Source: Paracoccaceae bacterium
GTDB lineage: Bacteria; Pseudomonadota; Alphaproteobacteria; Rhodobacterales; Rhodobacteraceae
NCBI GenBank assembly: GCA_902573175.1
Contig: CACGIS010000010.1
Span: 1-33,299 of the forward strand
Direction of reading: 5' to 3'
DNA: 33,299 nt
Of the stretch, positions 5,805-20,531 are shown piece by piece. Each line of letters starts with the position of its first letter. The first letter of the stretch is position 1. The notes beneath the pieces were generated by a model. It worked only from the letters and a program-made list of their open reading frames with translations, was not told where the DNA came from and ran no database searches. A program made the position numbers and the translations under genes.

Positions 5805-7019
5805 CCAGTTGGTTGTAAACCTTTAAATTTTGGATTTCGGTTACGCATTATTAAAAATAGGACGATACCTATATTTAGGAAATTCCATATTATACCGTTC
5901 CAAAAAGCGGCCGCGTAAGAACCTGTAATGTCGTAAATCCAGCCTGACATCCAACCACCGATAGCCATCCCCATTATGGTGCACATCATGACAAAGCCAA
6001 CGCGGGTACCAGCCTCTGCGCCTGGTAAATATTCGCGAATAATAATCGCGTAACTTGGGACGATACCACCTTGGGATAATCCGAAAACTGCTGAAACGAT
6101 GTAAAGAGATACCAATCCATCAAAAGGCAGATACAGAAAAAGTGCTATGCATTGAAGAGTAGATCCAATTAACAGGGTATAAACCCCTCCTAATTTATCA
6201 GCCAACAAGCCATTTATTAGGCGAGAAACTATGCCTCCTATCAGCATTAAGGATAACATTTCAGCACCAACAGCAGGGCCGTAACCTAAGTCAATACAGA
6301 ACGCGACGATATGAACCTGTGGCATAGACATTGCAACGCAACACCCGACTCCCGCAATCGAAAGTAAAATTGTAAGCGTTCTGGGGGATATGTTTACGCT
6401 TGATCTCCTATTCTCGGAGGCAGCATCAGATGCCCTAGAAGTCTCTTCGCTGATTTTTTTTGTAAGCAAAAACGATAATGGGATCATTATAAAAATGGTG
6501 GCTAGAGCCAGTATTCCGTATACATCTCTCCAACCATCTGATTGTAAGGCACTGTTAAAAAGGGGGGGGCCAAATTGCTCCCGAGAAGTAATTTCCGCTG
6601 GCGATTAGGGCAACGGCTATGCCCCGTCTCTTTAAAAACCAGTGGGAAGTATCTGCGATGAGTGGACCAAATGATGCGGCCGTACCAAAGCCAATAAAGA
6701 ATTGTAAAACACTAAGTAAATAAACGTTATTCACTTGCATGGCTGCGATATAGCCTACGGTGTTAATTATAGCTGCGAGAATAATTGTTTTTGTTATTCC
6801 ATGGTGATCAACAATTCGTCCCATCACTCCGTTACCAATAGCAAAGCCAACCATTGTTAAGGCGAATGGAATAGATGCTGTGCTCCGATCAATGGTAAAT
6901 TCTTGCTGTATGTCTGGTAGTATAATGACAACCACCCACATGCCTATATTGCCTACTGTCGCTACTAAAAGAGCAATAAGCAGTCGGAACCAAGAGTATA
7001 AACTATCGTGCTCTTTCAT
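5801..7019 (-). pseudogene. MFS transporter split by a +1 homopolymer shift
   Basis: Two adjacent frames are one gene. The first runs from ATG 7019 to a stop near 6555 and holds about five to six membrane segments with a MFS loop motif (MGRIVDHHG). The second resumes the family sequence through NSALQSDGWRDVYGILALA, DKLGG and six further helices to 5801. The break is a run of eight G (6562-6569; C8 on the coding strand). With seven, the frame reads IWPPLFNSALQ, the expected continuation, giving about 405 residues, a normal MFS length. It is an inner-membrane secondary transporter, probably of the oxalate/monocarboxylate-like branch, with unknown substrate. It is probably intact in the cell; see the findings. 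Confidence 0.85.
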
Positions 7020-7939: not shown

Positions 7940-8043
7940 GAAGCAATCCTCTGTAGGTAAAACATGTTAAAAATACATTATTTTTCAATATTGGCACTAA
8001 ATTTGCAACTATTTTTGCGAAGAACTTTTTAAAACTTATAAAG

Positions 8044-8067
8044 GCCGCATAGCACATGCTATGTGGC
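8044..8067 (-). terminator. Hairpin after the 90-residue membrane protein gene
   Basis: An 11-bp inverted repeat (GCCGCATAGCA / TGCTATGTGGC, one G-T wobble) with a tight 2-base centre. On the minus strand it is followed by CTTTATAAGTTTT, and on the plus strand by TCATTTTTTG. It lies 55 bp beyond the stop of the minus-strand gene at 8123 and before the MBL gene, so it is best read as that gene's terminator. Confidence 0.55.
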
Positions 8068-8122
8068 TCATTTTTTGTTAAAATTTTTGTTGGTAATACT
8101 CCACATAATATCTAGAAATAAA

Positions 8123-8395
8123 TTAGTTGATACGGATCCTAGTTTCAACTGGGGTACATTTGTACTTTTTCATGAGGCCTTGGGCTGCCATGCTTTCACG
8201 AACCCATTTTTTCCCAGCAGGATTTATAATATGACTTTCTTGTGATAATTCAAACATCTGCCGATATTGTAGACATCCAATAGATTTATCTCTCTTTTCC
8301 TGCTGCGACTTCAGGTAAGAGGGAGCAAAAATAATGGCAAAAATCAGAGTTAGCGTTACTGCGAAAACAATGAAGCTCCATACAAATGTTTTCAT
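8123..8395 (-). CDS. Small membrane-anchored protein of unknown function
   Basis: A 90-residue frame from ATG 8395. Residues 4-28 are one long hydrophobic segment (FVWSFIVFAVTLTLIFAIIFA), followed by a charged stretch and a soluble tail with two Cys (CLQYRQMFELS near residue 41 and KYKCTP near 78-83) that could form a disulfide if the tail is periplasmic. The Shine-Dalgarno sequence is weak (AAGG about 13 bases upstream). It is divergent from the SOUL-protein gene and followed by a hairpin, so it is probably a single-gene unit. I do not recognise a family. Confidence 0.65.
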   Translation of the reverse strand: MKTFVWSFIVFAVTLTLIFAIIFAPSYLKSQQEKRDKSIGCLQYRQMFELSQESHIINPAGKKWVRESMAAQGLMKKYKCTPVETRIRIN

Positions 8396-8513
8396 GGTGC
8401 AATAGACCTTCTCTAAACTGGGACTTTATTACACAATAAGTTTTAAAAAACTTTAAATAAATACTATTTTTTTTCATTTTTTTAATCAGTTTTTTTAATG
8501 ATTTTTATAGCAG

Positions 8514-8519
8514 TATAAT
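8514..8519 (+). promoter_or_regulatory. Possible -10 box for the SOUL-protein gene
   Basis: A perfect TATAAT lies 51 bp upstream of the start at 8571, in a very T-rich divergent intergenic region. No clear TTGACA-like -35 is placed 17 bp upstream, so this is a weak assignment. Confidence 0.3.
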
Positions 8520-8570
8520 TTATTTTGATAAAACTGAGTACAAGCAAATAGAATCTAATGGGACTTAAAA

Positions 8571-9161
8571 ATGAGAGTTGGTCTAGTTTTTCTGTTAACT
8601 ATTTTCTACTTCTGGGCGAATATATCTATCGCATTAGAAGAGACTTCATATCGCGTAATTACTGCAAATCAAATTTATGAAATTAGAGAATATGATGATC
8701 GCCTTGCTGTGCAAACTAGGCAAAAAAATGGGCAAAACGGGGCCTTTAGAAAATTATTTAAGTACATTTCTGGATCAAATATCTCTTCCACAAAAATAGA
8801 GATGACGACGCCTGTCACACAGTCGATAAAAATAGATATGACCACGCCGGTTACGCAGAAGTTTCAAGATGGCGAAATAATTATGAAGTTTTTTTTGCCA
8901 AGAAAATTTCAACTAAAAACAGCACCTCAACCATTAAGTGAGGACCTATCTGTTGTCATCGTAAAAGGGGGTAAATATGCCGTTATAAAATACTCTGGAC
9001 GCTCAACTTATAAAAATTTTGAAAGGCAATCAAAAGTACTTCTCGAGGCTTTAGGTACTGACAAGATTGAAACAATTGATCAACCAATAAAGGCAACGTT
9101 TAACGGGCCTTTGACACCATTTTTTATGAGAAGAAATGAAGCGATGATTAGGATCGAGTAG
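8571..9161 (+). CDS. Exported SOUL-family heme-binding protein
   Basis: A 196-residue protein with an N-terminal hydrophobic signal segment (residues 3-21, VGLVFLLTIFYFWANISIA), so probably periplasmic. The SOUL/HBP family is recognised from YEIREYDDRLAVQT near residues 36-49, repeated MTTPVTQ motifs near 81-102, FFLPRKF, KYAVIKYSGRST, and a C-terminal segment with PLTPFFMRRNE. Family members bind heme or tetrapyrroles and have been linked to heme trafficking and stress. Here the MTTPVTQ unit occurs twice in tandem (KIEMTTPVTQS, KIDMTTPVTQK), with the DNA also repeated. GGGAC about 9 bases upstream may serve as ribosome site. It is followed by a good terminator. Confidence 0.93.
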   Translation: MRVGLVFLLTIFYFWANISIALEETSYRVITANQIYEIREYDDRLAVQTRQKNGQNGAFRKLFKYISGSNISSTKIEMTTPVTQSIKIDMTTPVTQKFQDGEIIMKFFLPRKFQLKTAPQPLSEDLSVVIVKGGKYAVIKYSGRSTYKNFERQSKVLLEALGTDKIETIDQPIKATFNGPLTPFFMRRNEAMIRIE

Positions 9162-9180
9162 TTCTAGATCTCGATGATTT

Positions 9181-9214
9181 AGCACGGGCATCTAAACATG
9201 CAAAAACCCGTGCT
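9181..9214 (+). terminator. Rho-independent terminator after the SOUL-protein gene
   Basis: An 8-bp perfect stem AGCACGGG / CCCGTGCT with an 18-base loop, followed by GATTTTTCT. It lies 19 bp after the stop at 9161 and just before the convergent gene ending at 9222. The loop is larger than ideal. Confidence 0.7.
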
Positions 9215-9221
9215 GATTTTT

Positions 9222-9845
9222 CTATTCGACCTTTACTAGCATTCTTGAAGACTTTAATGTTGCGGCCTCATGTGCAGCATTAACAATACCAAGAAATCGT
9301 TCATCGGTAACCATTTTGTCAACAGATTGTCCCCAATGAACCATGGATTCAAATCGGTACACTATTCTGAGCATTTCATGGTCATCCTTCATGATTGGCA
9401 TACCTACACCAACCTCAACTCCTAGGCTTTCCATAAGGTTTTGAAGTTCGGGCGCAAGCTCCAAGGCCTTTTGTACTGCTGATCTTGGGGTATGATAGTC
9501 GCGGTGCACCACAACTGGCTTACCGCCCTTTGGAGCGTTCCCAAATATCATTCTCCCTATCCAAGGACCTACAACTTCTCCGACGGGATCGACAGCCCGC
9601 AATTGCATTACCTTTTGGAAGTCTTCATCGGCACCAAAAGCTTCAAAAGCGGTTGCCCCTGCTTCAACAGTGTCATACCAGTTCATTAAGTCAAATCGAC
9701 CTGCCCCATCTCCAGCTACGACCTTAAATACGCTGGATTTTGCGCCATGCCGCTCCATAATGCTCGATAGTCGGAGCATCCTTTCCTGCAAAACGGCCTC
9801 TTTGCCAGTTACTGGCGTTACTTCTCTTATAGCTACATATGACAT
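9222..9845 (-). CDS. Tandem ferredoxin-like-fold protein of unknown function
   Basis: A 207-residue cytoplasmic protein. It reads as two alpha/beta halves of about 100 residues: the first from YVAIREVTPVTGKEAVLQERM to about residue 95, the second from KPVVVHRDYHTPRSAVQKA to the end. Each resembles the dimeric alpha-beta-barrel (ABM/NIPSNAP-like) fold, with a strand, a helix after 'VLQERM' or 'VQKALE', and a strand carrying DLMNWYDT or RIVYRFES. The start has a strong GGGAGG ribosome site 7 bases upstream. I cannot assign an enzyme; members of this fold bind heme or small aromatic or carbonyl compounds. It stands alone, 79 bp downstream of the secreted-protein gene on the same strand. Confidence 0.78.
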   Translation of the reverse strand: MSYVAIREVTPVTGKEAVLQERMLRLSSIMERHGAKSSVFKVVAGDGAGRFDLMNWYDTVEAGATAFEAFGADEDFQKVMQLRAVDPVGEVVGPWIGRMIFGNAPKGGKPVVVHRDYHTPRSAVQKALELAPELQNLMESLGVEVGVGMPIMKDDHEMLRIVYRFESMVHWGQSVDKMVTDERFLGIVNAAHEAATLKSSRMLVKVE

Positions 9846-9924
9846 TTTAATCCTCCCTATTTGTATCTATATGCTACTTACTAAACCAAAAATTTTCTAA
9901 TATATTTCCTCCGCAACTGTAGAA

Positions 9925-10386
9925 TTAGTTCACGGGTTTAAAATCGTAAACAACACCTCCATCTACCCGGGTCCTAGTTTTGCCTTGAAACTTAGCTCCT
10001 GTTAAAGTTGCCCACTTCCCAGTTCCCGCAATTATTGTTAGGGCAATTGTGCCGTCTGGTTGGAAAACACCATTGACTAGCGAAATGTCACCATCTGGAT
10101 CATGCGCCTGGCAAACCCCAATTCCCCCATTTGGTCGCTGTTGACCGGTAGCAAAAACCTGAAAATAATTACAGTTAACTTTCATTGCTTCGGGAAAACC
10201 TTCTGGCGGATTTTCATACATCCATATGTCGCTGGTCGTTGCCTGGACATGGTTACCAGAAGTGCCTTCAATAGTTTTTAAATCAATACGAACCCCTGTT
10301 CCAGATGCACTCAAAGCCGAATGACCTCCAGCAAAAGCAGCAAAAGGTGCAAATACCAACACTGCGGCTGCAATAATTCTTTTCAT
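9925..10386 (-). CDS. Secreted beta-rich protein of unknown function
   Basis: A 153-residue protein with a clear signal peptide (MKRIIAAAVLVFAPFAAFA, cleavage near residue 19). The mature part is polar and rich in Gly, Thr and Asp, with two Cys (VNCNYFQ and GVCQAHD) suited to a disulfide, and a motif GTGKWATLTGA typical of strands in small beta-barrels such as the allene-oxide-cyclase/dirigent-like barrel. That resemblance is by eye and weak. AAGGAAT lies about 8 bases upstream of the start. Role and ligand are unknown. Confidence 0.75.
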   Translation of the reverse strand: MKRIIAAAVLVFAPFAAFAGGHSALSASGTGVRIDLKTIEGTSGNHVQATTSDIWMYENPPEGFPEAMKVNCNYFQVFATGQQRPNGGIGVCQAHDPDGDISLVNGVFQPDGTIALTIIAGTGKWATLTGAKFQGKTRTRVDGGVVYDFKPVN

Positions 10387-10663
10387 TTTTATATTCCTTA
10401 TTTAATTGAACTTAAAGCTAGGATTTTCTGATAAAAATTATCAAGAATTACGTAACGCTATTTTTGCGCAGCATATTAATTGAACATTTTTTACGCACTA
10501 AGTATAATTTTGGGAGCAGTTTAATAAGTGATCGGTCAAGCAAATAAGTTTAAAACTTAGCATTTAGGTAAAGAATGGCCTGGGCAGTATAAAAATTTAA
10601 GATTTATATTCAAAGGTTATTCTAAATGAACTAAAGATCACATATCCAAATTGAGGTATTTTT

Positions 10664-11971
10664 ATGCAATTAGAGCGAAGAAAATGGGTACCAGAAGCCA
10701 GCGAAAATTTAGTTCAAGATTTGGCTCAAAAAGTTTCAGGATCATCTTCTAAAGAATTATTGAAACGGCTTACCTTTTTGGCTGATTTAAACAAAATAAT
10801 TCACGAGAAAGACTGTTTTAACCTAAATCCAGCTACCAATGTTATGAACCCACGGGCAGAGTCTTTTCTATCAAGCGGTATAGCGTCTCGCCCGTCGCTT
10901 GGATATCCTGGAGATAAATATGAAATGGGTCTTGAAGCTATAGAAGAAATAGAAGTTGTGGCTTCTAGTCTCGTGGCAGAAATTTTTTGCTCTAAGTTTG
11001 CCGAAATTAGAGTGCCCTCTGGTGCAATGGCAAACCTTTTTTCTTTTATGTCTATTTGCAAACCTGGAGATACAATTATTGTACCACCTGCCTCTATTGG
11101 TGGACATGTGACCCACCATAACCCAGGATGTGCAGGATTATTTGGGTTAAATATAATCGAAGCCCCTATCGATAAAGACTATTATACTGTGGATATAGAC
11201 CAACTTCGTGAACTTGCTTTGAAAGAAAAACCAAAACTTATCACACTGGGGGGTAGCCTTAATTTATTTGAGCATCCTGTTTCGGCAGTTAGTTCAATAG
11301 CCAAGGAAGTAGGGGCTAGACTTTTATTTGATGCAGCTCACCAGTGTGGGCTTATAGCAGGGAAAGTCTGGGAAAACCCACTAGATCTTGGAGCTGACGT
11401 AGTTACGATGAGTACCTACAAGAGCTTAGGAGGACCTCCAGGTGGTGCAATTATTACCAACGATGCTGGAATTGCAGAAAAAATTGATCGCATTGCATTT
11501 CCTGGCATGACAGCGAATTTTGATGCTGCTAAGTCAGCAGCTTTGGCTGTAACGATGCTGGATTGGAGGGAGTTCGGTAAAGAATACGTTGCTGAAATGG
11601 TTCTTATGGCTAAAACTCTTGCCTCATCTTTGGAAGAATACGATATCCCAATATTTTTTGGAGCCTTGGGACATACGCAATCACATCAGTTTGCAGTACT
11701 AGCAGAAGAGTATGGCGGAGGTCAGCAAGCATCTAAACTATTACGAAAATCTGGCTTTCTCGCTTGTGGAATTGGATTGCCGGTTAAAGAATTAGAGGGA
11801 GATATGAATGGTCTGAGGTTTGGCACTCCTGAATTGGTCAGGTGGGGTATGAAAGCAAAGGATTCAATCCGTTTGGCAGGATTGATTGCAAAAGCTTTGA
11901 AAGGTAAAACTCTCACAGAAGAGGTGTCAGAATGGCGCAAGACTTTTAAAAAGCTCCATTTTATCCACTAG
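10664..11971 (+). CDS. Serine-hydroxymethyltransferase-like PLP enzyme with altered active site
   Basis: A 435-residue fold-type I PLP enzyme. Alignment by eye to GlyA shows GYPGDKY near 79-85 (GlyA GYPGKRY), HVTHHNP (GlyA HLTH), FDAAHQCGLIAG (GlyA VDMAHVAGLVA), STYKSLGGPPGG with the PLP Lys at 253 (GlyA TTHKTLRGPRGG), and GLRFGTPELVRWGM near the C-terminus (GlyA GIRVGTPAITRRG). The His before the PLP Lys in GlyA is Tyr252 here and the N-terminal third is divergent, so this is probably a paralogue acting on a different amino acid (for example alpha-methylserine-type or aldolase chemistry) rather than the housekeeping GlyA. GAGG lies about 9 bases upstream of ATG. It stands alone. Confidence 0.85.
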   Translation: MQLERRKWVPEASENLVQDLAQKVSGSSSKELLKRLTFLADLNKIIHEKDCFNLNPATNVMNPRAESFLSSGIASRPSLGYPGDKYEMGLEAIEEIEVVASSLVAEIFCSKFAEIRVPSGAMANLFSFMSICKPGDTIIVPPASIGGHVTHHNPGCAGLFGLNIIEAPIDKDYYTVDIDQLRELALKEKPKLITLGGSLNLFEHPVSAVSSIAKEVGARLLFDAAHQCGLIAGKVWENPLDLGADVVTMSTYKSLGGPPGGAIITNDAGIAEKIDRIAFPGMTANFDAAKSAALAVTMLDWREFGKEYVAEMVLMAKTLASSLEEYDIPIFFGALGHTQSHQFAVLAEEYGGGQQASKLLRKSGFLACGIGLPVKELEGDMNGLRFGTPELVRWGMKAKDSIRLAGLIAKALKGKTLTEEVSEWRKTFKKLHFIH

Positions 11972-12027
11972 AATAGGATTCTGCTAATCCGGTTTTAATT
12001 TTAGCAATTGTTATTCATTTATAATGC

Positions 12028-13149
12028 TTAACTTCGCTTTAATTTCAGCTGAAAGAACGACTTATGATAACCGTTAAGCAACCAGTTCAAAGGCGTGAAC
12101 TTGATAAAAGTGTAATACAAAAATACGCAGACTATAAAACCAATGATGATTGTCAGTAAAAAATTACTGATTTGGCTCAATCCAGCCTCATAGAGGCCAG
12201 CACTGATTATAGGCAGTGGAATAACGTGCACTATGTATATGGGGTAAGAGAGTTCAACAAACCATCTAAGTGTTGCACTACTTGATTGGATAAATTTGGA
12301 TGCTAATCCAATAAAAAATAAACACCACAAGATAGTGTTGGCTCCTCTTGTAAATGCATTGAAAAGAACCTCAACGGTATCAAATTTCATAGATGTAATT
12401 TTTCTGATATCTTCTACTTCGCTGTAAAGTAAACTACCTGCATATAATTGTGCGAAATATGCCAACACAGATAGGATACCCAATAGTGTGATAGTTTTAT
12501 TCTCTGATAATTTACTGAAGATTTTTTGGTTCGAGTAAAGAAGAACGCCCAACAAAAAATATGAAAAATAATATACCAAGTTACCAGGTTTAAGACTAAA
12601 AAAAGTTTCTGACGGCATCAGTGCGTACGGATTAAACGAATTATTTAGAATGTGGGCTAAAGGTACTGTCGCAATTAACCATAAAGAAATTATGAGAAAT
12701 ATTATTGGGGAAATTATTTTACAAACAAGTTCTTTGAATACTTTGATTTTGTATAAAAGTGAGAAACACAAGACAAAAATCATTAGTTCATACAGGAACC
12801 ATAAATGCGCTGTAGTGAAATCAATCCTACCATCTAATATATCGTAAAATGCGGAAAATAATAAGCAGGTTATGCCTATTCTTATAATGCGATCCTTTAC
12901 GAAGTATGGGTTGCCTTTTTTTTCTATAACTAAAACAGCAAAAAAACCTGACAATAGAAAAAATAGAGGCATTCTCCAGTTACTGATGAAACTCATCACT
13001 AACCACCCCCAACTTTCTAGTACTGGTATATTCTCAATTTGAAAATCTCTTGCCACATCTGGCATCGTAAATAAGATAGGTGCATGAATGACTAATCCCA
13101 TCATCATTGCAAACGCTCTTAAAAAATCCAAGTTATGTAACCGTGACAT
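12028..13149 (-). CDS. Membrane acyltransferase, acyltransferase 3 family (OafA/OpgC-like)
   Basis: A 373-residue integral membrane protein with about ten hydrophobic helices. The N-terminus HNLDFLRAFAMMMGLVIHA carries the family's Arg and catalytic His, and WRMPLFFLLSGFFA near residues 60-75 is the second family signature. Such enzymes move acetyl, succinyl or similar groups onto extracytoplasmic glycans or lipids. The ATG at 13149 is chosen; the frame extends only to a TTG two codons earlier. The ribosome site is weak. The gene converges with the SHMT-like gene and is divergent from the hydantoinase region. No glycan genes adjoin it, so the acceptor is unknown. Confidence 0.9.
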   Translation of the reverse strand: MSRLHNLDFLRAFAMMMGLVIHAPILFTMPDVARDFQIENIPVLESWGWLVMSFISNWRMPLFFLLSGFFAVLVIEKKGNPYFVKDRIIRIGITCLLFSAFYDILDGRIDFTTAHLWFLYELMIFVLCFSLLYKIKVFKELVCKIISPIIFLIISLWLIATVPLAHILNNSFNPYALMPSETFFSLKPGNLVYYFSYFLLGVLLYSNQKIFSKLSENKTITLLGILSVLAYFAQLYAGSLLYSEVEDIRKITSMKFDTVEVLFNAFTRGANTILWCLFFIGLASKFIQSSSATLRWFVELSYPIYIVHVIPLPIISAGLYEAGLSQISNFLLTIIIGFIVCVFLYYTFIKFTPLNWLLNGYHKSFFQLKLKRS

Positions 13150-13516
13150 TTTCAATCTTTCTTTCGAGATTCTCAGAATTAAAAAATACTTGAGCCAATG
13201 CCAGAGACGTAATTATTACAGATTTATATTTCAAGAAAGTCTTACAGTATTGTCGGCGTTTAGGCGATTTGATTATAGTGAAAAAAGTAGCAGTGAGTGT
13301 GCCAAAGGTGGTTAAAATTAAATGTCCATAAAAACAGATACTTCTGATGGTAAATGGCAGTTCTGGATAGACTGGAGCATAATATTGAACTCTTAATAAA
13401 TGGCGAATTGGGATGTGTGGAAATATAGGTGTGCCAAATGTGGGCATCGGGGTAGCACTAAAGTATTGAAAAATAACAAGATGGTCATCAGGTGTGCTAA
13501 AGGTGTGCGAAAATAA
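13150..13516. other. 367-bp intergenic region upstream of the hydantoinase gene
   Basis: This stretch holds no convincing gene. It contains a relic of the hydantoinase 5' end (see 13297-13396) and three copies of a 14-base motif GTGTGCYAAAKGTG at 13297-13310, 13429-13442 and 13492-13505. The last copy overlaps the hydantoinase ribosome site. Confidence 0.6.
13297..13396 (+). pseudogene. Relic duplicate of the hydantoinase gene start
   Basis: From 13322 an ATG opens a 24-codon frame starting MSIKTDTSDGKWQFWID, which matches the true gene start MSIKTTTSSGKWEFWID at 14 of 17 residues, then diverges and stops at 13396. The homology also covers the leader: GTGTGCCAAAGGTG begins exactly 25 bases before this ATG, as GTGTGCTAAAGGTG does before the real start at 13517. 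The two copies are offset by 195 bases. It looks like the remains of a second hydantoinase gene or an old partial duplication. Confidence 0.8.
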
Positions 13517-16500
13517 ATGTCAATAAAAACAACAACATCTAGTGGTAAATGGGAATTCTGGATAGACCGTGGAGGCACGTTCACTGATATAGTTGCAAAG
13601 TCACCGGACGGATCTTTTAAAAACTCGAAGTATCTCTCTGAAAATCCGGAACAATATAAAGACGCTGCCATCCAAGGAATTCGTGATTTTTTGAAAATTG
13701 ATAATGATAAAAAAATCAAAGAATTGGATGTCGATTGTGTAAAAATGGGAACGACAGTGGCGACAAACGCTTTGCTGGAACGAAAAGGAGATCGAACGCT
13801 TCTTCTTATAACTGAAGGGTTCCGGGATTTACTTCGAATAGGATACCAAGCGAGGCCAAAACTTTTCGATTTCAATATTATATTACCTACTCCTATTTAT
13901 GAAATGGTTGGTGAAATCAAAGAAAGGTTAGACGCAGAAGGTGAAATAATTGAGCCATTAGATGAGGCGAAGGCTCGTGAGGGTTTGAAATCAGCTCGGG
14001 CTAAAGGAATTAAAAGTGTCGCTATCGCTTTAATGCATAGTTATTTGAACCCAATACACGAAAAGCGAATTGCACAAATAGCTGCTGATGAAGGGTTTGA
14101 GCAAATTTCAATTAGTCATGAAATTTCACCTCTTATGAAATTAGTTGGCAGGGCGGATACAACCGTTATCGATGCTTATTTATCTCCAATTCTGAAGCGT
14201 TACGTTGCTCAAATATCTTCAGAATTTGATACAGATTATGCAGCGCAACTTTTATTTATGCAGTCAAATGGTGGCTTAACAGACGCAAATATTTTCAGAG
14301 GAAAAGACGCTATACTTTCTGGCCCGGCCGGTGGAGTTGTGGGCATGGTCAAAACTGCACAAATTGCTGGATTTAAGAAATTAATTGGTTTTGATATGGG
14401 TGGGACTTCTACTGACGTCTGTCACTATAATGGCGAATTTGAAAGAAGTTTTGAAACAGAAGTTGCCGGTGCACGGGTCCGTGCTCCTATGATGGATATA
14501 CACACAGTTGCGGCTGGCGGAGGATCAATTTTACTCTTTCGAGATGGACGGTTTCAGGTTGGTCCCGAAAGTGCCGGAGCAAATCCAGGCCCTGCTTGCT
14601 ACCGAAGAGGGGGCCCATTAACGGTAACTGATTGCAACGTTATGTTAGGCAAGCTTCAGGCGCTTCATTTTCCATGTGTTTTTGGACCTAATGCCGATCA
14701 GCCAATAGATGTGTCAATTGTTGAAAACATGTTTAAAGAGTTTGCTGAAGAAATATCAATGAAAACAGGGAACAAACCTTTGCCGGCTGTAGAATTGGCA
14801 GACGGGTTTTTGCGAATAGCTGTCTCAAATATGGCCAACGCTATCAAAAAAATCTCTGTCCAAAGAGGATATGACATAACGAAGTATGCGCTACAATGTT
14901 TTGGCGGAGCAGGAGGGCAACACGCATGTCTGGTAGCTGATGCTTTGGGCATTCAAACTATTTTTATCCATCCTTTCGCAGGTGTCCTTTCAGCCTATGG
15001 TATGGGGCTAGCTGAAATTCGCTGTATGAAAGAGAGCCAATTTGAGCGTTCTCTCACTGATTATCAAGAAGCATTAGCGCTGCTTTCAGCATTATCAGAA
15101 AAAGCTACAGACCAAGTTGTATCTCAAGGGGTTCCTCACAACGACATAATTGTAAAGTGTAGAGCGCACCTACGGCTGAAAGGCTCACATCAAGCGCTTA
15201 TGGTTAGTTTTGGTAATTTGGAAGAGTTGAAAAAGCGTTTTGATGAAGCCCATCGTGCGCGTTATGGGTTTTCTAGTGATGGAAGAGAGCTCATATTTGA
15301 GGCCTTAAGTGTTGAGGCAATAGGTGGCGCATCTGAAATTAAAGAGGCGGTTTATGAAGAAGTGAAGCAAGCGCCAGTAGCAGTCGATATAGTGAAAATG
15401 ACTAGCCAAGGAGAGTTAATAAAAGCTCCACTATATGAGAGATCACTGTTGAAACCAGGGCAATGGATTTCTGGACCAGCAATTATAAAGGAACCCACAG
15501 GCACAAATATTATAGAGCCAGGTTGGAGTGCTAAAGTTAACGAATTCCGACACCTCATTTTAGAAAGAAAAGTGCCTATAAATAGAAAAGAGGCGATTGG
15601 AACGAAAGCGGATCCAATTATGCTGGAAGTTTTCAATAGCTTATTTATGTCTATAGCTGAGCAAATGGGGGCAACTCTTGCTAACACTGCATATTCTGTA
15701 AATATCAAAGAACGGCTCGATTTTTCATGTGCACTGTTCGACCCTAAAGGTGGACTAGTGGCGAACGCCCCTCATGTTCCGGTACATTTAGGAAGTATGT
15801 CTGGGTCTATTAAATCAATTATTCGACAAAATCCAAATATGAAACAGGGTGAAGTTTTTGCACTAAATGCGCCATTCAATGGGGGTACTCATTTACCTGA
15901 CGTTACTGTTATCACTCCAGTTTTTGATGATGATGGAGAGGTTCTGTTTTTTGTAGCATCACGTGGACACCATGCCGATATCGGGGGTAAAACCCCTGGA
16001 TCAGCGCCTCCTGACAGTCAAACTATTGAAGAAGAAGGTGTATTAATTGATAATTTTAGGCTAGTGGAGAATGGCAATTTCAGAAGGCAAGAAACCAAAC
16101 AACTTCTTGGTTCTGGAAAATATCCCTGCAGAAACATTGAGGAAAATCTAGCAGATTTAGCTGCTCAAGTTGCTGCAAACGAAACAGGGGTTCGAGAAGT
16201 AAACAAGATGATCGAACAGTTTGGCGTTAAAGTTGTACACTCCTATATGCGCTATGTGCAGGACAACGCCGAGGAGTGTGTTAGACAGGTTCTAGCCAGA
16301 TTGAAAGGCGGAAAGAGCGAATATGAATTGGATAACGGTAAATTCATAAGAGTATCAGTAAGCGTAGATAAAAAAGCAAGAACAGCAAAGATAGATTTTA
16401 CAGGAACAGCCGCAAAAGATCCACTCAATTACAATGCACCGCTAGCCGTTTGTCATGCTGTAGTACTATATGTTTTTCGCAGCCTCATCGGCAAAGAAAT

Positions 16501-17134
16501 TCCATTAAATGAGGGATGCTTTCGTCCGCTGACAATTATAGCACCTAAGGGGAGTATGATCCATGCTGAATATCCCTCAGCGGTTATTGCCGGAAATACA
16601 GAGGTGAGCCAGTTAATGTGCAATGCTCTTTTGCAGGCATTGGGGGTTATGGCCGGCAGTCAGGGAACAATGAATAATTTTGTGTGGGGAAATGATGAGT
16701 TGCAAAACTACGAAACAATCTGTGGTGGAAGTGGTGCAGGGTCCAATTTTAATGGATGTTCTGGTGTTCAAACCCATATGACTAACACCAGAAGTACGGA
16801 TCCCGAAATTTTAGAGTTTCGTTTTCCTGTGAGAGTTGAGGAAATGTCAATAAGGGTTGGGTCCGGTGGTAATGGAAAATTTACTGGTGGTGATGGGATA
16901 ACTCGGCGTTTGCGCTTTCTTGAGCAAATGACGGTAACAACTTTGTGTTCCCATAGGCGGGTGCCTCCAAAGGGTCTAAATGGAGGCGAAAATGGCGAGG
17001 CAGGACGCGAATGGATTGAGCGTCAGAATGGAAGTATCGATAGGCACAATGGAAATGATGAAAACGAATTATATCCTGGTGATGTATTTGTAATGCAGAC
17101 ACCTTCTGGAGGTGGGTTTGGCACTAAAAACTAA
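13517..17134 (+). CDS. Fused hydantoinase A/B (5-oxoprolinase type, ATP-dependent)
   Basis: A 1205-residue cytoplasmic enzyme. Residues about 11-190 are the HyuA N-terminal domain (WIDRGGTFTDIV near 16-27, MGTTVATNALLERKG), about 205-530 the actin-like hydantoinase A core (FMQSNGGL, ILSGPAGGVVGM, GFDMGGTSTDV near 291-301), and about 695-1195 the HyuB half (ERLDFSCALFD, NAPHVPVHLGSM, FALNAPFNGGTHLPDVT, SRGHHADIGG, SGGGFG at the C-terminus). Such fusions hydrolyse 5-oxoproline, N-methylhydantoin or related cyclic amides using ATP. AAAGGTG about 10 bases upstream serves as ribosome site. It converges with an operon encoding two amide hydrolases, 28 bp away, suggesting related substrates. Which cyclic amide is used cannot be read directly. 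Confidence 0.93.
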   Translation: MSIKTTTSSGKWEFWIDRGGTFTDIVAKSPDGSFKNSKYLSENPEQYKDAAIQGIRDFLKIDNDKKIKELDVDCVKMGTTVATNALLERKGDRTLLLITEGFRDLLRIGYQARPKLFDFNIILPTPIYEMVGEIKERLDAEGEIIEPLDEAKAREGLKSARAKGIKSVAIALMHSYLNPIHEKRIAQIAADEGFEQISISHEISPLMKLVGRADTTVIDAYLSPILKRYVAQISSEFDTDYAAQLLFMQSNGGLTDANIFRGKDAILSGPAGGVVGMVKTAQIAGFKKLIGFDMGGTSTDVCHYNGEFERSFETEVAGARVRAPMMDIHTVAAGGGSILLFRDGRFQVGPESAGANPGPACYRRGGPLTVTDCNVMLGKLQALHFPCVFGPNADQPIDVSIVENMFKEFAEEISMKTGNKPLPAVELADGFLRIAVSNMANAIKKISVQRGYDITKYALQCFGGAGGQHACLVADALGIQTIFIHPFAGVLSAYGMGLAEIRCMKESQFERSLTDYQEALALLSALSEKATDQVVSQGVPHNDIIVKCRAHLRLKGSHQALMVSFGNLEELKKRFDEAHRARYGFSSDGRELIFEALSVEAIGGASEIKEAVYEEVKQAPVAVDIVKMTSQGELIKAPLYERSLLKPGQWISGPAIIKEPTGTNIIEPGWSAKVNEFRHLILERKVPINRKEAIGTKADPIMLEVFNSLFMSIAEQMGATLANTAYSVNIKERLDFSCALFDPKGGLVANAPHVPVHLGSMSGSIKSIIRQNPNMKQGEVFALNAPFNGGTHLPDVTVITPVFDDDGEVLFFVASRGHHADIGGKTPGSAPPDSQTIEEEGVLIDNFRLVENGNFRRQETKQLLGSGKYPCRNIEENLADLAAQVAANETGVREVNKMIEQFGVKVVHSYMRYVQDNAEECVRQVLARLKGGKSEYELDNGKFIRVSVSVDKKARTAKIDFTGTAAKDPLNYNAPLAVCHAVVLYVFRSLIGKEIPLNEGCFRPLTIIAPKGSMIHAEYPSAVIAGNTEVSQLMCNALLQALGVMAGSQGTMNNFVWGNDELQNYETICGGSGAGSNFNGCSGVQTHMTNTRSTDPEILEFRFPVRVEEMSIRVGSGGNGKFTGGDGITRRLRFLEQMTVTTLCSHRRVPPKGLNGGENGEAGREWIERQNGSIDRHNGNDENELYPGDVFVMQTPSGGGFGTKN

Positions 17135-17162
17135 AGTTTATAATCTTGAGACAGAAAGATAA

Positions 17163-18317
17163 TTAGGCAATTATTACATCATCAATCGATTTTGGATGGG
17201 CCGTAAGAGGTTCCCACCCGGTTTCGGTCATAATTACGCTATCTCCGACTTGAGCTCTAAAAGTTTCTCCTGAAACAGACCCGTCCACTGCAAAAACCAT
17301 TCCTGGTTCCAGAATGGTTTTATCTCCAGTGACCAATTGAGGTTTTTCCAAAAAGCTGAAGCCTGTAGCGCGGCCACAACGAAAAGGATAATTAAAACCG
17401 GCATCTTGAATTACTGTTGCATAAGCGGCGTGTACGCTTTCTGCTGTCACACCCGGTTTAAGGACGTCCAAGGCCGCTTTCTGACTTGCTATGGCAACTT
17501 CATAAATTTTGATTTGAGATTTATCAGCAATTCTATCAATCCAAAAAGTTCTATCGAACCCAAGTTTAAATTTGTGAAAATTTGTCATACCACAGAAACA
17601 AAGAAATACCGGCTCACCGGTTTGCATTATTCGCGTGCTGGCTCTGTGGTGAGTTTTAGTGATAGCGTCCCCCGATGCCATGATTTGTAAAAAATGAGTA
17701 TTGGGTGACATAAATTTGTCTTCATATTCACTTTCTAAAATATCAGCTGCTTTTCTGGTACCAGCATTCGATGTGGCTATCGCAACTTGGTATTCCGCAA
17801 CACCGTGGCTTATAGCTTCACGACCAGCTGCCATCATTGCGGTTGCAACTTGACCTGCATCACGTGCAATTTTCAGTTCTTCTTCTGATTTTATCATTCG
17901 CATGGTACTTAGAATTGGAGTTGCGGATGTAATTCTGTCGTATGACACCTCTACATCTATATATCTCCTAACGATCGGAGGCATCTGATCTGGCTCAATA
18001 GCTATACGCTTGGATCTTTTTAAAACTTTTGGAAGTTCTTCTCTCCACTCATCTCCCATACCGTCATTCCACGCTGATATTCGATCTACGCAAGCAGTTT
18101 CCTCAGCTGTATTGAGATCTATCGTAGGAGTTATAAGCAGAGTGCCATAGTCTATTGAAATAACCAGTAAGGTTGGCCGTCCAAATTCCATATGAAGATA
18201 GTCATAATAGCCGCACAAGTAGTAAACGTTATCTTCATCCGTTATTATTGCTGTATCTATATCATTTTCTTGAAGCTTATTTTTTAATTTGGATAGTCGG
18301 CTTTCAAAAACTGTCAT
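17163..18317 (-). CDS. Creatinase / ectoine-hydrolase-like M24-fold C-N hydrolase
   Basis: A 384-residue protein with the two-domain pita-bread architecture: N-terminal creatinase domain (SRLSKLKNKLQENDIDTAIITDEDNVYYLCGY) and C-terminal M24 domain. Start 18317 is preferred over the longer frame because its ATG overlaps the upstream stop (ATGA) and AAGGA lies about 11 bases upstream. The His pair at 223-224 (THHRAS) fits the catalytic His of creatinase, but most metal ligands of M24 aminopeptidases are missing: the GHG motif is GRA (315-317), the EPG motif is DGS (345-347), and the last Glu region reads VGDS. This pattern fits metal-free creatinase or DoeA-type hydrolases better than Xaa-Pro peptidase. 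It is last in the cupin-M20D-M24 operon. Confidence 0.85.
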   Translation of the reverse strand: MTVFESRLSKLKNKLQENDIDTAIITDEDNVYYLCGYYDYLHMEFGRPTLLVISIDYGTLLITPTIDLNTAEETACVDRISAWNDGMGDEWREELPKVLKRSKRIAIEPDQMPPIVRRYIDVEVSYDRITSATPILSTMRMIKSEEELKIARDAGQVATAMMAAGREAISHGVAEYQVAIATSNAGTRKAADILESEYEDKFMSPNTHFLQIMASGDAITKTHHRASTRIMQTGEPVFLCFCGMTNFHKFKLGFDRTFWIDRIADKSQIKIYEVAIASQKAALDVLKPGVTAESVHAAYATVIQDAGFNYPFRCGRATGFSFLEKPQLVTGDKTILEPGMVFAVDGSVSGETFRAQVGDSVIMTETGWEPLTAHPKSIDDVIIA

Positions 18318-19465
18318 ACCGAATTTGATCCTTCTGTAGAAAGGCGGTTTTTTGCAAGATTGGCCCAAAAATCTGCACCAATTGGTAAAAGATCATCATT
18401 AAAATCATAATCGCTGGAATGGAGCGGTTTATTGTTTGCTCCATCTATCCCATTTCCAAAAAGGAAAAAACAACCGGGTACGGCATTACTGAAATGGGCA
18501 AAGTCCTCTGAAAAACTCATAGGTTTACAGTCAGTGACTTTAAGGCCACTTTTTTTTGCAGTTTTTAAAACTGCTTCGGTGGGTTTGATATGATTATTTG
18601 TTTCTATGAATTCAGTTTCAAAAGACACTTCAATTTCAATGTCATGTGCAGATGCTATACCACTAGTAATTTGGTGCAAGAAAAGTTCTATCTTTTTTCG
18701 ATCATCGGGTCGCCTTGTTCTTACATCACCCTTCAGAATAGTTTCACCAGGCAGAACATTTCTCTGCCCATTAGAAATAAATTCAGTTATTGAAACAACT
18801 GCGCCTGATCCAGAAGCAATTCTTCTAGAGATAATAGTCTGGAGAGCTTGGACAACCTCGGTTCCAATAGTAATAGCGTCTCGACCTAATTGCGGCATTG
18901 AGGAGTGTCCCCCCATACCCTTAATTTTTATTTCAAAGAGGCTTTCAGAAGAACAAATTACTCCAGATCGTGTTAATAGTTCTCCAGTTGGAACTCCTGG
19001 AAGGTTATGCATGCCATAAATTTCTTGCATGGGAAAATTTTCTAATAAACCCTCATCCATCATGGCTTTAGCGCCTAAACCAAGCTCTTCATTGGGTTGA
19101 AAAATAAAAACTATAGTTCCACTGAAATTTGCATTTTTAGAGAGTTTATGCGCAGCCCCCAAAAGCATAGTCATATGACCATCATGTCCACAAGCATGCA
19201 TAACACCTGTATTATTCGATACGTAATCGTGAGTGTTTGTCTCCCGAATGGGTAGAGCATCCATGTCGGCCCTTAGCCCGATGACTTTATTTCCTTCACC
19301 TGAGCGAAGGACGCCAACTATTCCTGCACCAGAATGAACGTCTAATCCCAGTTCTTTTAAATAACCAATTATTTTGTCTTTGGTTCTTTTTTCTTTGAAA
19401 CCAAGTTCTGGGAATCTGTGAAAGTCACGCCGAATTTCTACTAAATTTTCGGATTTCAAATTCAT
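18314..19465 (-). CDS. M20D-family amidohydrolase (hippurate / N-acyl-amino acid type)
   Basis: A 383-residue metalloamidase. Metal ligands are visible: HACGHDGH with Cys92 and His94, Glu126-Glu127 in FQPNEELGLG, His153 in GMHNLPG, and a late His in NKPLHSSDYDF. The RRDFHRFPELGF start and GLRADMDALPI near residues 63-73 place it in subfamily M20D, which cleaves acyl groups from amino acids (hippurate, IAA-amino acids, N-acetyl-diaminopimelate). The N-terminus MNLKSENLVEIRRDFH is normal for the family. Its stop overlaps the M24 gene start by four bases, so the two are translationally coupled and probably act on successive intermediates. Confidence 0.93.
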   Translation of the reverse strand: MNLKSENLVEIRRDFHRFPELGFKEKRTKDKIIGYLKELGLDVHSGAGIVGVLRSGEGNKVIGLRADMDALPIRETNTHDYVSNNTGVMHACGHDGHMTMLLGAAHKLSKNANFSGTIVFIFQPNEELGLGAKAMMDEGLLENFPMQEIYGMHNLPGVPTGELLTRSGVICSSESLFEIKIKGMGGHSSMPQLGRDAITIGTEVVQALQTIISRRIASGSGAVVSITEFISNGQRNVLPGETILKGDVRTRRPDDRKKIELFLHQITSGIASAHDIEIEVSFETEFIETNNHIKPTEAVLKTAKKSGLKVTDCKPMSFSEDFAHFSNAVPGCFFLFGNGIDGANNKPLHSSDYDFNDDLLPIGADFWANLAKNRLSTEGSNSV

Positions 19466-19508
19466 TGAAGCTATCTAAGAAGATTTACTGCGCTACTGGC
19501 ATGAAATA

Positions 19509-19538
19509 TCTGCGAGGAAACTTATAAGACCTCGCAGA
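19509..19538 (-). terminator. Hairpin between the cupin gene and the M20D gene
   Basis: A perfect 9-bp stem TCTGCGAGG / CCTCGCAGA with a 12-base loop, 12 bp after the cupin stop. On the minus strand it is followed by TATTTCAT, a poor T tract. It may act as a partial terminator or transcript stabiliser, raising cupin expression above the two hydrolases. Confidence 0.5.
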
Positions 19539-19550
19539 CTTCCTGGTATA

Positions 19551-19907
19551 TTATCCAGCGTCGCCCCAAATACCGTGAAATTCATACGCGATTGCTTTTG
19601 TATCGCCAACAACCCATGCGTCATGCCCAGGGTCGATTGAATATGCATCTCCTGCAGTGTAGGTGATTTCTGAGCCATCATCATGGCGGCAGGTTATTGT
19701 TCCTTCTACTATGACTCCCAGATGCTTGGCCTGGCAACTTTCAGTGCCCACTAGTGGCTTTATGTCTTTAGACCATACCCATCCTGGTTGCGCTGCAATT
19801 TTCATAACTCTATTACCGCCCACGTTTACAATTTCTACTTTAGCGTTGTTGGGTTCCATTACTTCAGCCGCTTCTGTTGCAAAGGTCTTTTTTTCAACTG
19901 ATGACAT
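19551..19907 (-). CDS. Small single-domain cupin protein
   Basis: A 118-residue protein of one cupin barrel. Motif 1 is around KHLGVIVEGTITCRHDDG and motif 2 around AGDAYSIDPGHDAWV (residues about 83-97), with His near 62, 74 and 95 as likely metal ligands. The start has a good GGAG-type site (AAGGAGAAAG about 6 bases upstream). Single cupins of this kind act as isomerases, oxygenases or ligand-binding helpers; no specific reaction is evident. It is the first gene of the cupin-M20D-M24 operon, 85 bp from the M20D start and separated by a hairpin. Confidence 0.88.
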   Translation of the reverse strand: MSSVEKKTFATEAAEVMEPNNAKVEIVNVGGNRVMKIAAQPGWVWSKDIKPLVGTESCQAKHLGVIVEGTITCRHDDGSEITYTAGDAYSIDPGHDAWVVGDTKAIAYEFHGIWGDAG

Positions 19908-20117: not shown

Positions 20118-20531
20118 ATGAAACTCAAACTGCACCATATAAACTTGTGTACCTCCAATGTGAAAGATATGGACAAATTCTATCGAGAAGTTTTGTGTCT
20201 GGGTGATGATGAACCTAGTAAACTACCACCAATCAATCAAAACCGTGGATTAGTGGGCGATGTTTCATTTGTTACTGATGGTGATGTCCAGATGCACCTC
20301 ACAAAAAAAGATATTCTGAATTCTTTTCGTTCGGGCCAGACAGTGAACCCTTTGGAACGTGGACATATAGCCTATAGAACTGATGATATTGAAGCCTTTA
20401 AAGTTCATCTTGATGATTTGGGTGTTCCATATTCGGACTGGGGAAGTGATGCCGTAAAAGGGTGGCATCAGGTTTTCTTTTATGATCCTGAGGGAAATGT
20501 TATTGAGGTTCACCAAATAGTAAACAATTAA
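20118..20531 (+). CDS. VOC / glyoxalase-fold protein
   Basis: A 137-residue protein of two beta-alpha-beta-beta-beta modules. The metal residues typical of the vicinal oxygen chelate family can be placed at LHHINL (His near 5-6), GHIAYRTDD (His near 85) and GNVIEVHQ (Glu near 132). The ATG at 20118 is preferred over a TTG at 20103 because the protein then begins directly with the first strand. Members include glyoxalase I, extradiol dioxygenases and fosfomycin-type transferases; this one resembles generic lactoylglutathione-lyase-like proteins. It is a single gene with AT-rich DNA on both sides. Confidence 0.88.
   Translation: MKLKLHHINLCTSNVKDMDKFYREVLCLGDDEPSKLPPINQNRGLVGDVSFVTDGDVQMHLTKKDILNSFRSGQTVNPLERGHIAYRTDDIEAFKVHLDDLGVPYSDWGSDAVKGWHQVFFYDPEGNVIEVHQIVNN

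What the first reader, a model, noticed from the sequence alone, without database searches (positions are those of the whole stretch)
13517..19907. Candidate amide-degradation locus: oxoprolinase facing a cupin - M20D - creatinase-like operon
Seen: a fused ATP-dependent hydantoinase on the plus strand ends 28 bp from a translationally coupled minus-strand operon of cupin, M20D amidohydrolase and M24-fold hydrolase. Known: ATP-dependent hydantoinases open cyclic amides (5-oxoproline, N-methylhydantoin), creatinase- and DoeA-type M24 enzymes split C-N bonds without metal, and M20D enzymes release acyl groups from amino acids. Inference: the three hydrolases act on related nitrogen compounds (cyclic imide or lactam, then linear amide, then amino acid). 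I know of no described pathway with this exact set, and the cupin's role is open.
Basis: partly seen in the sequence, partly recalled or inferred. Interest (0 to 1): 0.6.

Follow-up and report, generated by a model that had tools for sequence, protein, structure and literature searches.

The report
Metal-free hydrolase and deacylase gene pair
A marine bacterium carries two overlapping genes for a pair of enzymes that most likely break down an unidentified nitrogen-rich small molecule in two steps, resembling the known ectoine-degrading pair; the oxoprolinase gene facing them is probably a bystander.

Summary
Only M20D and the M24 enzyme ("M24a") overlap (4 bp). The cupin lies 85 bp upstream, beyond a covarying hairpin.

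The full set was found only in the window's genus (6 of 16 genomes). In 120 Rhodobacteraceae genomes, one per genus, M24a and M20D co-occur (9 of 11 M24a genomes, window excluded; Fisher p 1e-7). The oxoprolinase does not follow them significantly (7 of 11 against 40 of 108; p 0.08) and was not found beside M24a outside the genus.

M24a has none of the five metal ligands of M24 peptidases. Its model is closest to creatinase (Z 40). It matches neither creatinase (24% identity) nor ectoine hydrolase (75 bits, cut-off 613); its first metal site is cysteine in 80 of 80 relatives. In 8 of 80 loci M24a, M20D and a diaminopropionate-lyase-type gene share one neighbourhood, usually with EutA-like and transporter genes; the window's genome has lyase-, EutA- and transporter-like genes at a second locus. 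But 19 of 28 adjacent pairs show no such partner.

Best reading: an EutD/EutE-like hydrolase plus deacylase module for an unknown amidine, guanidine or amide compound. Substrate unknown.

The parts
13517..17134 (+). Fused ATP-dependent hydantoinase/5-oxoprolinase-type protein (A and B domains in one chain, 1205 aa); convergent neighbour, probably an independent 5-oxoprolinase
   Evidence: 47-68% identical full-length homologues in other families and genera; none seen near M24a outside the genus
17163..18317 (-). M24a: metal-free pita-bread hydrolase of a creatinase-like clade (384 aa, ATG at 18317)
18314..19465 (-). M20D amidohydrolase (N-acyl amino acid deacylase type, 383 aa); its stop overlaps the M24a start as ATGA
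   Evidence: (TIGR01891 302.9 bits, cut-off 153.75)
19509..19538 (-). Intergenic hairpin between cupin and M20D (9-bp stem), 3 pairs with changes on both sides among 6 sequences
19551..19907 (-). Small cupin (118 aa), seen upstream of M20D in the window's genus only; role open
20118..20531 (+). Glyoxalase/VOC-family protein, divergent from the cupin; homologues also lie near M24a in 3 loci outside the genus; membership uncertain

Best explanation
M20D (18314-19465) and M24a (17163-18317) encode a two-enzyme catabolic module that works like the ectoine pair EutD/EutE (DoeA/DoeB). M24a is a metal-free pita-bread hydrolase that adds water across a C-N bond of an imported nitrogen-rich small molecule (an amidine, guanidine or cyclic amide). 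This leaves an N-acylated amino acid, which the metal-dependent M20D enzyme deacylates. The freed (di)amino acid is then probably taken apart by a PLP lyase of the diaminopropionate ammonia-lyase family, with an EutA-like protein and a second, metal-bearing M24 enzyme. In this genome such genes stand at a second locus beside ABC transport genes. The fused oxoprolinase is a convergent neighbour, most likely opening 5-oxoproline to glutamate independently; the cupin is a genus-level addition of unknown role. Shown here: gene structure, conservation and co-occurrence of the pair, loss of metal ligands, creatinase-like predicted fold, clustering with the other enzymes in some relatives, and the second locus. 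Inferred: order of steps, chemistry, substrate class, and that the second locus serves the same pathway in this genome.
For: Pair: M20D lies directly upstream of M24a on the same strand in 28 of 80 relatives' loci (23 of 75 outside the genus). A second count with another cut-off gave 29 of 80; in 16 of these 29 the M24a match begins 4 bp inside the M20D end, as in the window (in 5 of the 16 there is no ATG at that point). Co-occurrence, one genome per genus, window excluded: 9 of 11 M24a genomes have the M20D orthologue against 8 of 108 others, p 1.2e-7. Enzyme class: prolidase metal-ligand positions D,D,H,E,E are C240,G253,R316,D345,G358 in M24a, identical in 80 of 80 loci. Closest structures are three creatinases, Z 40.3-39.7, rmsd 2.3-2.4, 368-369 aligned; next prolidase 36.9 and EutD/DoeA 36.7. 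Partners: a DAPAL-type lyase is in 8 of 80 loci (L045, L047, L052, L055, L061, L062, L065, L099); all 8 also have M20D, 7 an EutA-like gene. Near M24a in 80 loci overall: EutA-like 28 (a second EutA-like type 17), soxB-like 22, M24b 21, DMGDH-like 18, Rieske 17, Ehu-like 16 (limit 90 bits, a few of these hits weak). The M20D orthologue sits next to DAPAL in all 7 genomes (of 120) that have both. Second locus: G000 C7 holds a DAPAL-like, M24b, EutA-like, PotA-like and PotD-like gene in a row. In L045 homologues of its lyase (65%), EutA (58%), PotA (80%) and PotD (47%) stand on one strand with creatinase, M20D (64%) and M24a (70%); L055 has PotA (81%), PotD (71%), M24b, DAPAL, M20D, M24a and an EutA-like gene on mixed strands. 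EutD and EutE are described as one bimodule (PMC8739950, passages), and Gram-positive eut clusters lacking eutE carry an abgB amidohydrolase gene (PMC13188858, passages; that AbgB is M20D is recalled).
Against: No substrate is known and none was tested. 52 of 80 M24a loci lack an adjacent M20D and 40 lack one in the fetched DNA; more distant M24a relatives sit with an amidase or a C-N hydrolase. Of the 28 adjacent-pair loci, 19 show no EutA-like, M24b or lyase gene in the fetched DNA, and none shows soxB, Rieske or Ehu genes, so the link of the compact pair to those partners rests on other loci. M24a and DAPAL do not co-occur significantly (3 of 11 against 14 of 108, p 0.19). Within the genus the C7-type lyase is in 5 of 11 genomes with M24a (G000, G001, G006, G010, G014), other lyases in G009 and G011, none in G002, G003, G007, G013, and it is in G015 without M24a (incomplete genomes). 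In G010 no Pot genes follow the C7-type cluster. The C7 lyase scores 242.9 bits, below the family cut-off of 276. M20D is split between frames in L034/G014 and G011. One metal position (D345) is still acidic. The Fisher tests do not correct for kinship beyond one genome per genus. The window genome is 59% complete.
Confidence: 0.5

Rival explanations
1. One reading: oxoprolinase, M24, M20D and cupin form one pathway (cyclic imide or lactam, then linear amide, then amino acid).
For: The four genes are adjacent in 6 of 16 genomes of the genus. Chemically plausible. HyuAB is somewhat more frequent in M24a genomes (7 of 11 against 40 of 108).
Against: p 0.08, and 0.17 with M20D. No same-type HyuAB in the fetched DNA of 75 loci outside the genus, nor beside M24a in the 7 other family genomes with both. 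Four genomes of the genus keep M20D-M24a without HyuAB or cupin beside it (G003, G007, G011, G013). HyuAB is on the other strand, so it is not in the operon.
Confidence: 0.1
2. Peptide salvage: M24a is an Xaa-Pro dipeptidase and M20D a carboxypeptidase or aminoacylase.
For: Plasmid records annotate the relatives as 'Xaa-Pro peptidase family protein'. The PepQ model gives the best NCBIfam score (102.8 bits, cut-off 630). M20D also matches CpsA (298 bits, cut-off 500). The compact pair stands without EutA-like, M24b or lyase genes in 19 of 28 loci.
Against: 0 of 5 metal ligands, invariantly. All named scores are far below cut-off. In many other loci the neighbours are small-molecule catabolic genes.
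Confidence: 0.08
3. M24a is itself a creatinase (creatine to sarcosine plus urea), with sarcosine-oxidase-type genes downstream.
For: Creatinases are the closest folds and the best sequence match in the PDB (84 bits). The histidine at creatinase H232 is kept (H223). soxB-like genes lie near M24a in 22 of 80 loci.
Against: 24-25% identity to creatinase-type proteins of relatives. The Glu262 and Glu358 positions are Asp255 and Asp345 in M24a, and the first metal position (Asn in creatinase) is Cys240. Two clusters hold a separate creatinase beside M24a: that of L055 scores 493-513 bits to solved creatinases, that of L045 is 64% identical to it.
Confidence: 0.06
4. The module belongs to catabolism of an N-methylated betaine or heterocycle (homarine-like or similar): ring or C-N opening by M24a, demethylation by sarcosine-oxidase- and DMGDH-like enzymes.
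For: M24a is followed by EutA-like and soxBDAG-like genes, with a Rieske oxygenase and an Ehu-like transporter, in many roseobacters. A homarine pathway using Mgd (N-methylglutamate dehydrogenase) has been reported (cited in PMC13390433, passages).
Against: None of the 28 adjacent-pair loci shows soxB, Rieske or Ehu genes, nor does the window. The homarine paper could not be read, so no gene-by-gene comparison was possible.
Confidence: 0.15

Closest known systems
Ectoine/hydroxyectoine hydrolase-deacetylase pair EutD/EutE (DoeA/DoeB)
   Same: A metal-free M24-fold C-N hydrolase encoded next to a deacylase; EutA-like, PLP-lyase and Ehu-type genes near M24a in some relatives.
   Different: M24a scores 75.5 bits against the EutD cut-off of 613; 21-22% identity to EutD-type proteins of relatives; the EutD FFEIAG glutamate is Cys240; the deacylase is M20D, not the EutE family; no EutD over cut-off in 16 genus genomes.
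Creatinase (creatine amidinohydrolase)
   Same: Closest predicted fold (Z 40) and metal-free; histidine H232 position kept.
   Different: 24-25% identity; substrate-binding glutamates replaced by aspartates; separate creatinase genes coexist in two clusters.
DoeB2 (NF038260) and AbgB-type deacylases of variant eut clusters
   Same: Window M20D best NCBIfam match is DoeB2 (316 bits); an M20D enzyme in place of EutE.
   Different: Below the DoeB2 cut-off of 550; neighbours differ; substrate unknown.
ATP-dependent 5-oxoprolinase and caprolactamase family
   Same: A and B domains, fused in one chain as in eukaryotic oxoprolinases (PMC8453981, passages).
   Different: Below caprolactamase cut-offs (361 and 170 against 1000 bits); 5-oxoproline activity untested.

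Membership tests
M24 metallopeptidase (prolidase/aminopeptidase P) | Five metal ligands D, D, H, E, E | tested here: not met
   C240, G253, R316, D345, G358 in M24a; M24b of the same genome keeps all five; same residues in 80 of 80 loci
EutD/DoeA ectoine hydrolase | TIGR02993 score over 613 bits | tested here: not met
   75.5 bits; no genome of the genus over cut-off, 0 of 16
EutD/DoeA ectoine hydrolase | Glutamate in the FFEIAG motif (catalytic role recalled, not read) | tested here: not met
   Cys240 in M24a
EutD/EutE-like bimodule (works like) | Hydrolase gene next to a deacylase gene, co-inherited | tested here: met
   28 of 80 adjacent; p 1.2e-7 across genera; 52 of 80 not adjacent
Creatinase | Active-site His232, Glu262, Glu358 (numbers and roles recalled) | tested here: not met
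   His kept; both Glu are Asp in M24a
Creatinase | Creatinase fold | tested here: met
   Z 40.3 to 1chm, rmsd 2.3, 369 aligned; prolidases and EutD at about 36.5, so the fold alone does not separate them
M20D amidohydrolases | TIGR01891 amidohydrolase subfamily over cut-off | tested here: met
   302.9 bits, cut-off 153.75
M20D amidohydrolases | Metal-site motifs HACGHDxH and (F/Y)QPxEE (recalled) | tested here: met
   residues 90-97 and 122-127
DoeB2 deacetylase | NF038260 over 550 bits | tested here: not met
   316.2 bits
ATP-dependent 5-oxoprolinase (fused type) | Hydantoinase A and B domains fused in one chain of about 1200-1250 aa | tested here: met
   1205 aa, four Pfam domains in order
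ATP-dependent 5-oxoprolinase (fused type) | ATP-dependent opening of 5-oxoproline | not testable with these tools
   needs an assay; no curated 5-oxoprolinase model among the NCBIfam hits
Cupin_2 | PF07883 gathering score 27.2 | tested here: inconclusive
   21.8 bits, residues 62-95 only

The most novel reading that the evidence does not exclude
M24a founds a new catalytic branch of the pita-bread fold: a metal-free hydrolase in which an invariant cysteine (Cys240, at the first metal site and at the glutamate of ectoine hydrolase) forms a covalent thioester- or thioimidate-type intermediate. With M20D it opens a dissolved marine nitrogen compound that no described pathway covers.
Probability: 0.2. 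Interest if true: 0.65.

Novelty: new variant of a known kind. Interest (0 to 1): 0.42.

Why it matters
M24a occurs in about a tenth of Rhodobacteraceae genera (12 of 120) and in other lineages, mostly with the M20D partner when counted per genus, yet relatives are annotated as 'Xaa-Pro peptidase' and 'amidohydrolase'. Recognising the pair as a metal-free C-N hydrolase plus deacylase, with candidate partner genes, turns it into a testable pathway for an unidentified organic nitrogen compound. It also shows a third residue at the same active-site position of one fold (Cys, where creatinase has Asn and ectoine hydrolase Glu).

Tried and rejected
Four-gene pathway with the oxoprolinase: tested by neighbourhoods and co-occurrence; not supported. 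M24a as plain peptidase: rejected on the metal ligands. M24a as creatinase or ectoine hydrolase: rejected on identity, cut-offs and active-site residues. A simple terminator between cupin and M20D: the pattern scan reported none there (its loop limit of 8 is shorter than this 12-base loop), but folding and covariation show a hairpin; whether it terminates or protects RNA is open. One covariation measure went against it: further pair types 4, shuffled mean 5.3. The cupin gave no match at E 0.001 in the PDB sequences, and its 12 listed plasmid relatives are under 42% identical; its structure was not predicted. ORF-cluster counts for EutA-like, sox and DAPAL genes were spoilt by wrong-strand ORFs and replaced by the tblastn counts. 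My first DoeA extraction failed and was redone; a first residue count used positions one too low and was redone. The notebook entry numbers the metal-site residues one lower and wrongly pairs the first ligand with Phe; the right residue is Cys240. Genomes with only a 38-40% M24a homologue (G066, G070, G075, G128, G137, G154) were not counted as M24a.

Literature: no paper describing an M20D-M24a pair turned up in searches (listings seen; passages read of PMC12817926, PMC13390433, PMC13188858, PMC8739950, PMC5924519, PMC8453981, PMC7192451). The 2026 homarine paper is not held, so overlap with it cannot be excluded. Roles of EutD's glutamate and of creatinase residues are recalled.


Full report
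Observation. The window (contig C10 of an incomplete, 59% complete genome) holds the four genes as described. The fused hydantoinase/oxoprolinase runs 13517-17134 +. The M24-fold gene runs 17163-18317 - from an ATG, M20D 18314-19465 -, and the cupin 19551-19907 -. M20D and M24 overlap by 4 bp (ATGA). The cupin is 85 bp upstream, so it is not translationally coupled.

Cupin-M20D junction. Between cupin and M20D lies a 9-bp hairpin (19509-19538; folding z-score of the 90-base stretch -2.1). In six sequences of the genus, 98% of stem cells pair and three pairs show changes on both sides. Of 500 shuffles, 0 reached the percentage paired, the number of such cells or the covariation score, 21 reached three such pairs, and 480 reached the number of pair types (4 observed, mean 5.3), which gives no support. 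Sliding the partner destroys the stem. The sequences are few and closely related. It suggests that cupin and M20D-M24a are expressed unequally.

Who has it. Of 16 genus genomes, six carry the arrangement (G000, G001, G002, G006, G010, G014; in G002 and G006 the oxoprolinase runs off the contig). Four carry only the M20D-M24a pair, at 56-65% identity, without the oxoprolinase or cupin beside it (G003, G007, G011, G013). One has an M24a fragment at a contig end (G009). Five have none (G004, G005, G008, G012, G015; all incomplete, and G008 has part of the oxoprolinase). M20D is split between frames in G014/L034 and G011. A scan of public genomes found 221 relatives of the M24 protein; the best 80 were kept, all 67-98% identical. 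Five of these 80 (L033-L037) match the contigs of genus genomes. M20D sits directly upstream of M24a in 28 of 80, 23 of 75 without the genus. With a laxer cut-off it is 29 of 80, and in 16 of these 29 the M24a match begins 4 bp inside the M20D end. M20D lies somewhere in the fetched DNA in 40 of 80. The same-type oxoprolinase and the cupin occur in the five genus loci only; one further locus (L111) has distant hydantoinase genes at 26-32%. Many loci are cut by contig ends, so presences are lower bounds.

Co-occurrence. In 120 Rhodobacteraceae genomes, one per genus, M24a (66-100% identical, fragments in G095 and G103 included) is in 12. The M20D orthologue (E up to 1e-100) is in 18, DAPAL in 17 and the same-type oxoprolinase in 48. 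Six genomes with only a 38-40% M24a homologue were not counted. Without the window genome, M24a and M20D share 9 of 11 (8 of 108 otherwise; p 1.2e-7). M24a and oxoprolinase share 7 of 11 (40 of 108; p 0.08), M20D and oxoprolinase 9 of 17 (38 of 102; p 0.17), M20D and DAPAL 7 of 17 (10 of 102; p 0.003), M24a and DAPAL 3 of 11 (14 of 108; p 0.19). In the seven other genomes with both M24a and oxoprolinase, these lie on different contigs (six) or 1.2 Mb apart (G084). I read this as support for the pair and against the oxoprolinase as a partner. Kinship between genera is not corrected for.

The M24 enzyme. Aligned with M24b of the same genome (which keeps all metal ligands), creatinase-type and EutD/DoeA-type proteins of relatives, M24a has C240, G253, R316, D345 and G358 at the five metal positions. 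These, with H223, D255, R313 and others, are identical in 80 of 80 loci. At the first metal position M24b has Asp, creatinase Asn, EutD Glu and M24a Cys; D345 is the only acidic residue left. The AlphaFold model (mean pLDDT 83, pTM 0.80) matches three creatinases best (Z 40.3, 39.8, 39.7), then prolidase (36.9) and EutD (36.7). Identity to creatinase, EutD and M24b proteins is 19-25%, and NCBIfam EutD gives 75.5 bits against a cut-off of 613. I take M24a for a separate metal-free branch.

The M20D enzyme matches the amidohydrolase subfamily above cut-off and DoeB2 best but below cut-off; its metal motifs are intact.

Partners elsewhere. Around M24a in the 80 loci: EutA-like genes 28 (a second EutA-like type 17), soxB-like 22, M24b 21, dimethylglycine-dehydrogenase-like 18, Rieske 17, Ehu-like 16, DAPAL 7 plus one C7-type lyase, creatinase 2 (limit 90 bits, so a few, such as DMGDH-like hits at 31-40% in three loci, are distant). 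All 8 loci with a lyase also have M20D, and 7 of them an EutA-like gene. Two arrangements hardly mix. In the 28 loci with M20D next to M24a, none has soxB, Rieske or Ehu genes, 8 have an EutA-like gene, 5 M24b, one a lyase, and 19 none of these three. In the sox/Ehu arrangement M20D, if present, stands apart. Annotated records agree: Aminobacter and Roseovarius plasmids carry Ehu-type transporter, LysR, M24a, arylmalonate decarboxylase and sarcosine oxidase genes. More distant M24a relatives in Paraburkholderia and Mesorhizobium sit with an amidase and ABC transport genes, and in strain SC52 with a carbon-nitrogen hydrolase. An amide-cleaving enzyme of one family or another thus recurs beside M24a in these records; in Rhizobium CCGE532 none is annotated beside it. 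The M20D orthologue is followed by diaminopropionate ammonia-lyase in Phaeobacter, one Ruegeria and Aliiroseovarius, and preceded by it in Shinella; a second Ruegeria record had none.

Second locus in the same genome. Contig C7 (about 31982-37354) encodes a DAPAL-like lyase (242.9 bits, cut-off 276), M24b, an EutA-like protein (135 bits, cut-off 318), and PotA- and PotD-like transport proteins (the Pot names rest on likeness to each other and to L055, not on a family score). In L045 homologues of the lyase, EutA and transport genes stand on one strand with creatinase, M20D and M24a; L055 holds PotA, PotD, M24b, DAPAL, M20D, M24a and an EutA-like gene on mixed strands. In G001, G006 and G014 the C7-type cluster is followed by two further long proteins (presumably permeases, not scanned) and, on the opposite strand, a ureohydrolase (scored as agmatinase in G001); in G010 neither is there. 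In the genus the C7-type lyase is in 5 of 11 genomes with M24a and in one without it, so the link is plausible, not proven.

Mechanism. By analogy with EutD/EutE, both needed to degrade ectoines efficiently (PMC8739950, passages), I propose that M24a hydrolyses a C-N bond of an amidine, guanidine or cyclic amide. M20D then removes the acyl group, and the released amino acid is handled by the lyase and EutA-like proteins. Gram-positive eut clusters that carry an abgB amidohydrolase gene and lack eutE (PMC13188858, passages) make an M20D deacylase in this role plausible. The substrate is not identified. A homarine-type N-methyl compound is a candidate for the sox/Rieske version of the cluster, but the relevant paper was not available.

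Oxoprolinase and cupin. The fused protein resembles eukaryotic oxoprolinases in architecture (PMC8453981, passages), and its relatives are common and, as far as seen, unlinked to M24a outside the genus. It probably opens 5-oxoproline or a similar lactam by itself. The cupin's 76-77% homologues in G003, G005, G007 and G013 lie away from M20D and M24a.

Verdict. Real genes and a real, conserved two-gene module. The four-gene pathway is not supported. New variant of a known kind, substrate unknown.

Noticed in passing
window 12028-13155 and 13322-13377 vs 13517-13574: An acyltransferase gene lies in front of the oxoprolinase together with a second, truncated copy of the oxoprolinase start (81% identical over 58 bases). 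In the sister genome L034 the same upstream DNA is joined directly to the gene, while L035 and L036 have different DNA there. It looks like an inserted cassette carrying its own copy of the gene start.
   Followed up: partly
window 5801-6487 and 6555-7019, - strand: Two adjacent ORFs that look like the C- and N-terminal parts of one MFS transporter, probably a broken gene (only the first was scanned).
   Followed up: no
window 19509-19538, - strand: Covarying intergenic hairpin between cupin and M20D, possibly a terminator, attenuator or RNA processing site.
   Followed up: yes
L192 (G000 C7), 7983-13355: Second locus with DAPAL-like, M24b, EutA-like and Pot-type transport genes, possible partners of the window pair.
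   Followed up: partly
L204 14234-19826 (similar in L205, L206, partly L207): Next to the C7-type cluster in related genomes: agmatinase-family enzyme, FMN-dependent hydroxyacid dehydrogenase, ThDP enzyme, HIUase/transthyretin-like protein and a DMSP-demethylase-type protein over its cut-off (561 bits, cut-off 410; only L204 was scanned).
   Followed up: partly
window 20118-20531; L089 12644, L107 12007, L109 12008: A VOC/glyoxalase gene divergent from the cupin also has relatives (48-51%) near M24a in three loci outside the genus, so it may belong to the module.
   Followed up: no
L045 7510-8730, L055 16164-17381: Creatinase-type genes beside M24a, M20D and EutA-like genes; these clusters hold two or three different M24-fold enzymes.
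   Followed up: partly
L034 1159-2308 (G014) and L195 about 9655-10700 (G011): M20D is read in two frames or pieces in these two genus genomes, so it may be damaged or misassembled there.
   Followed up: no
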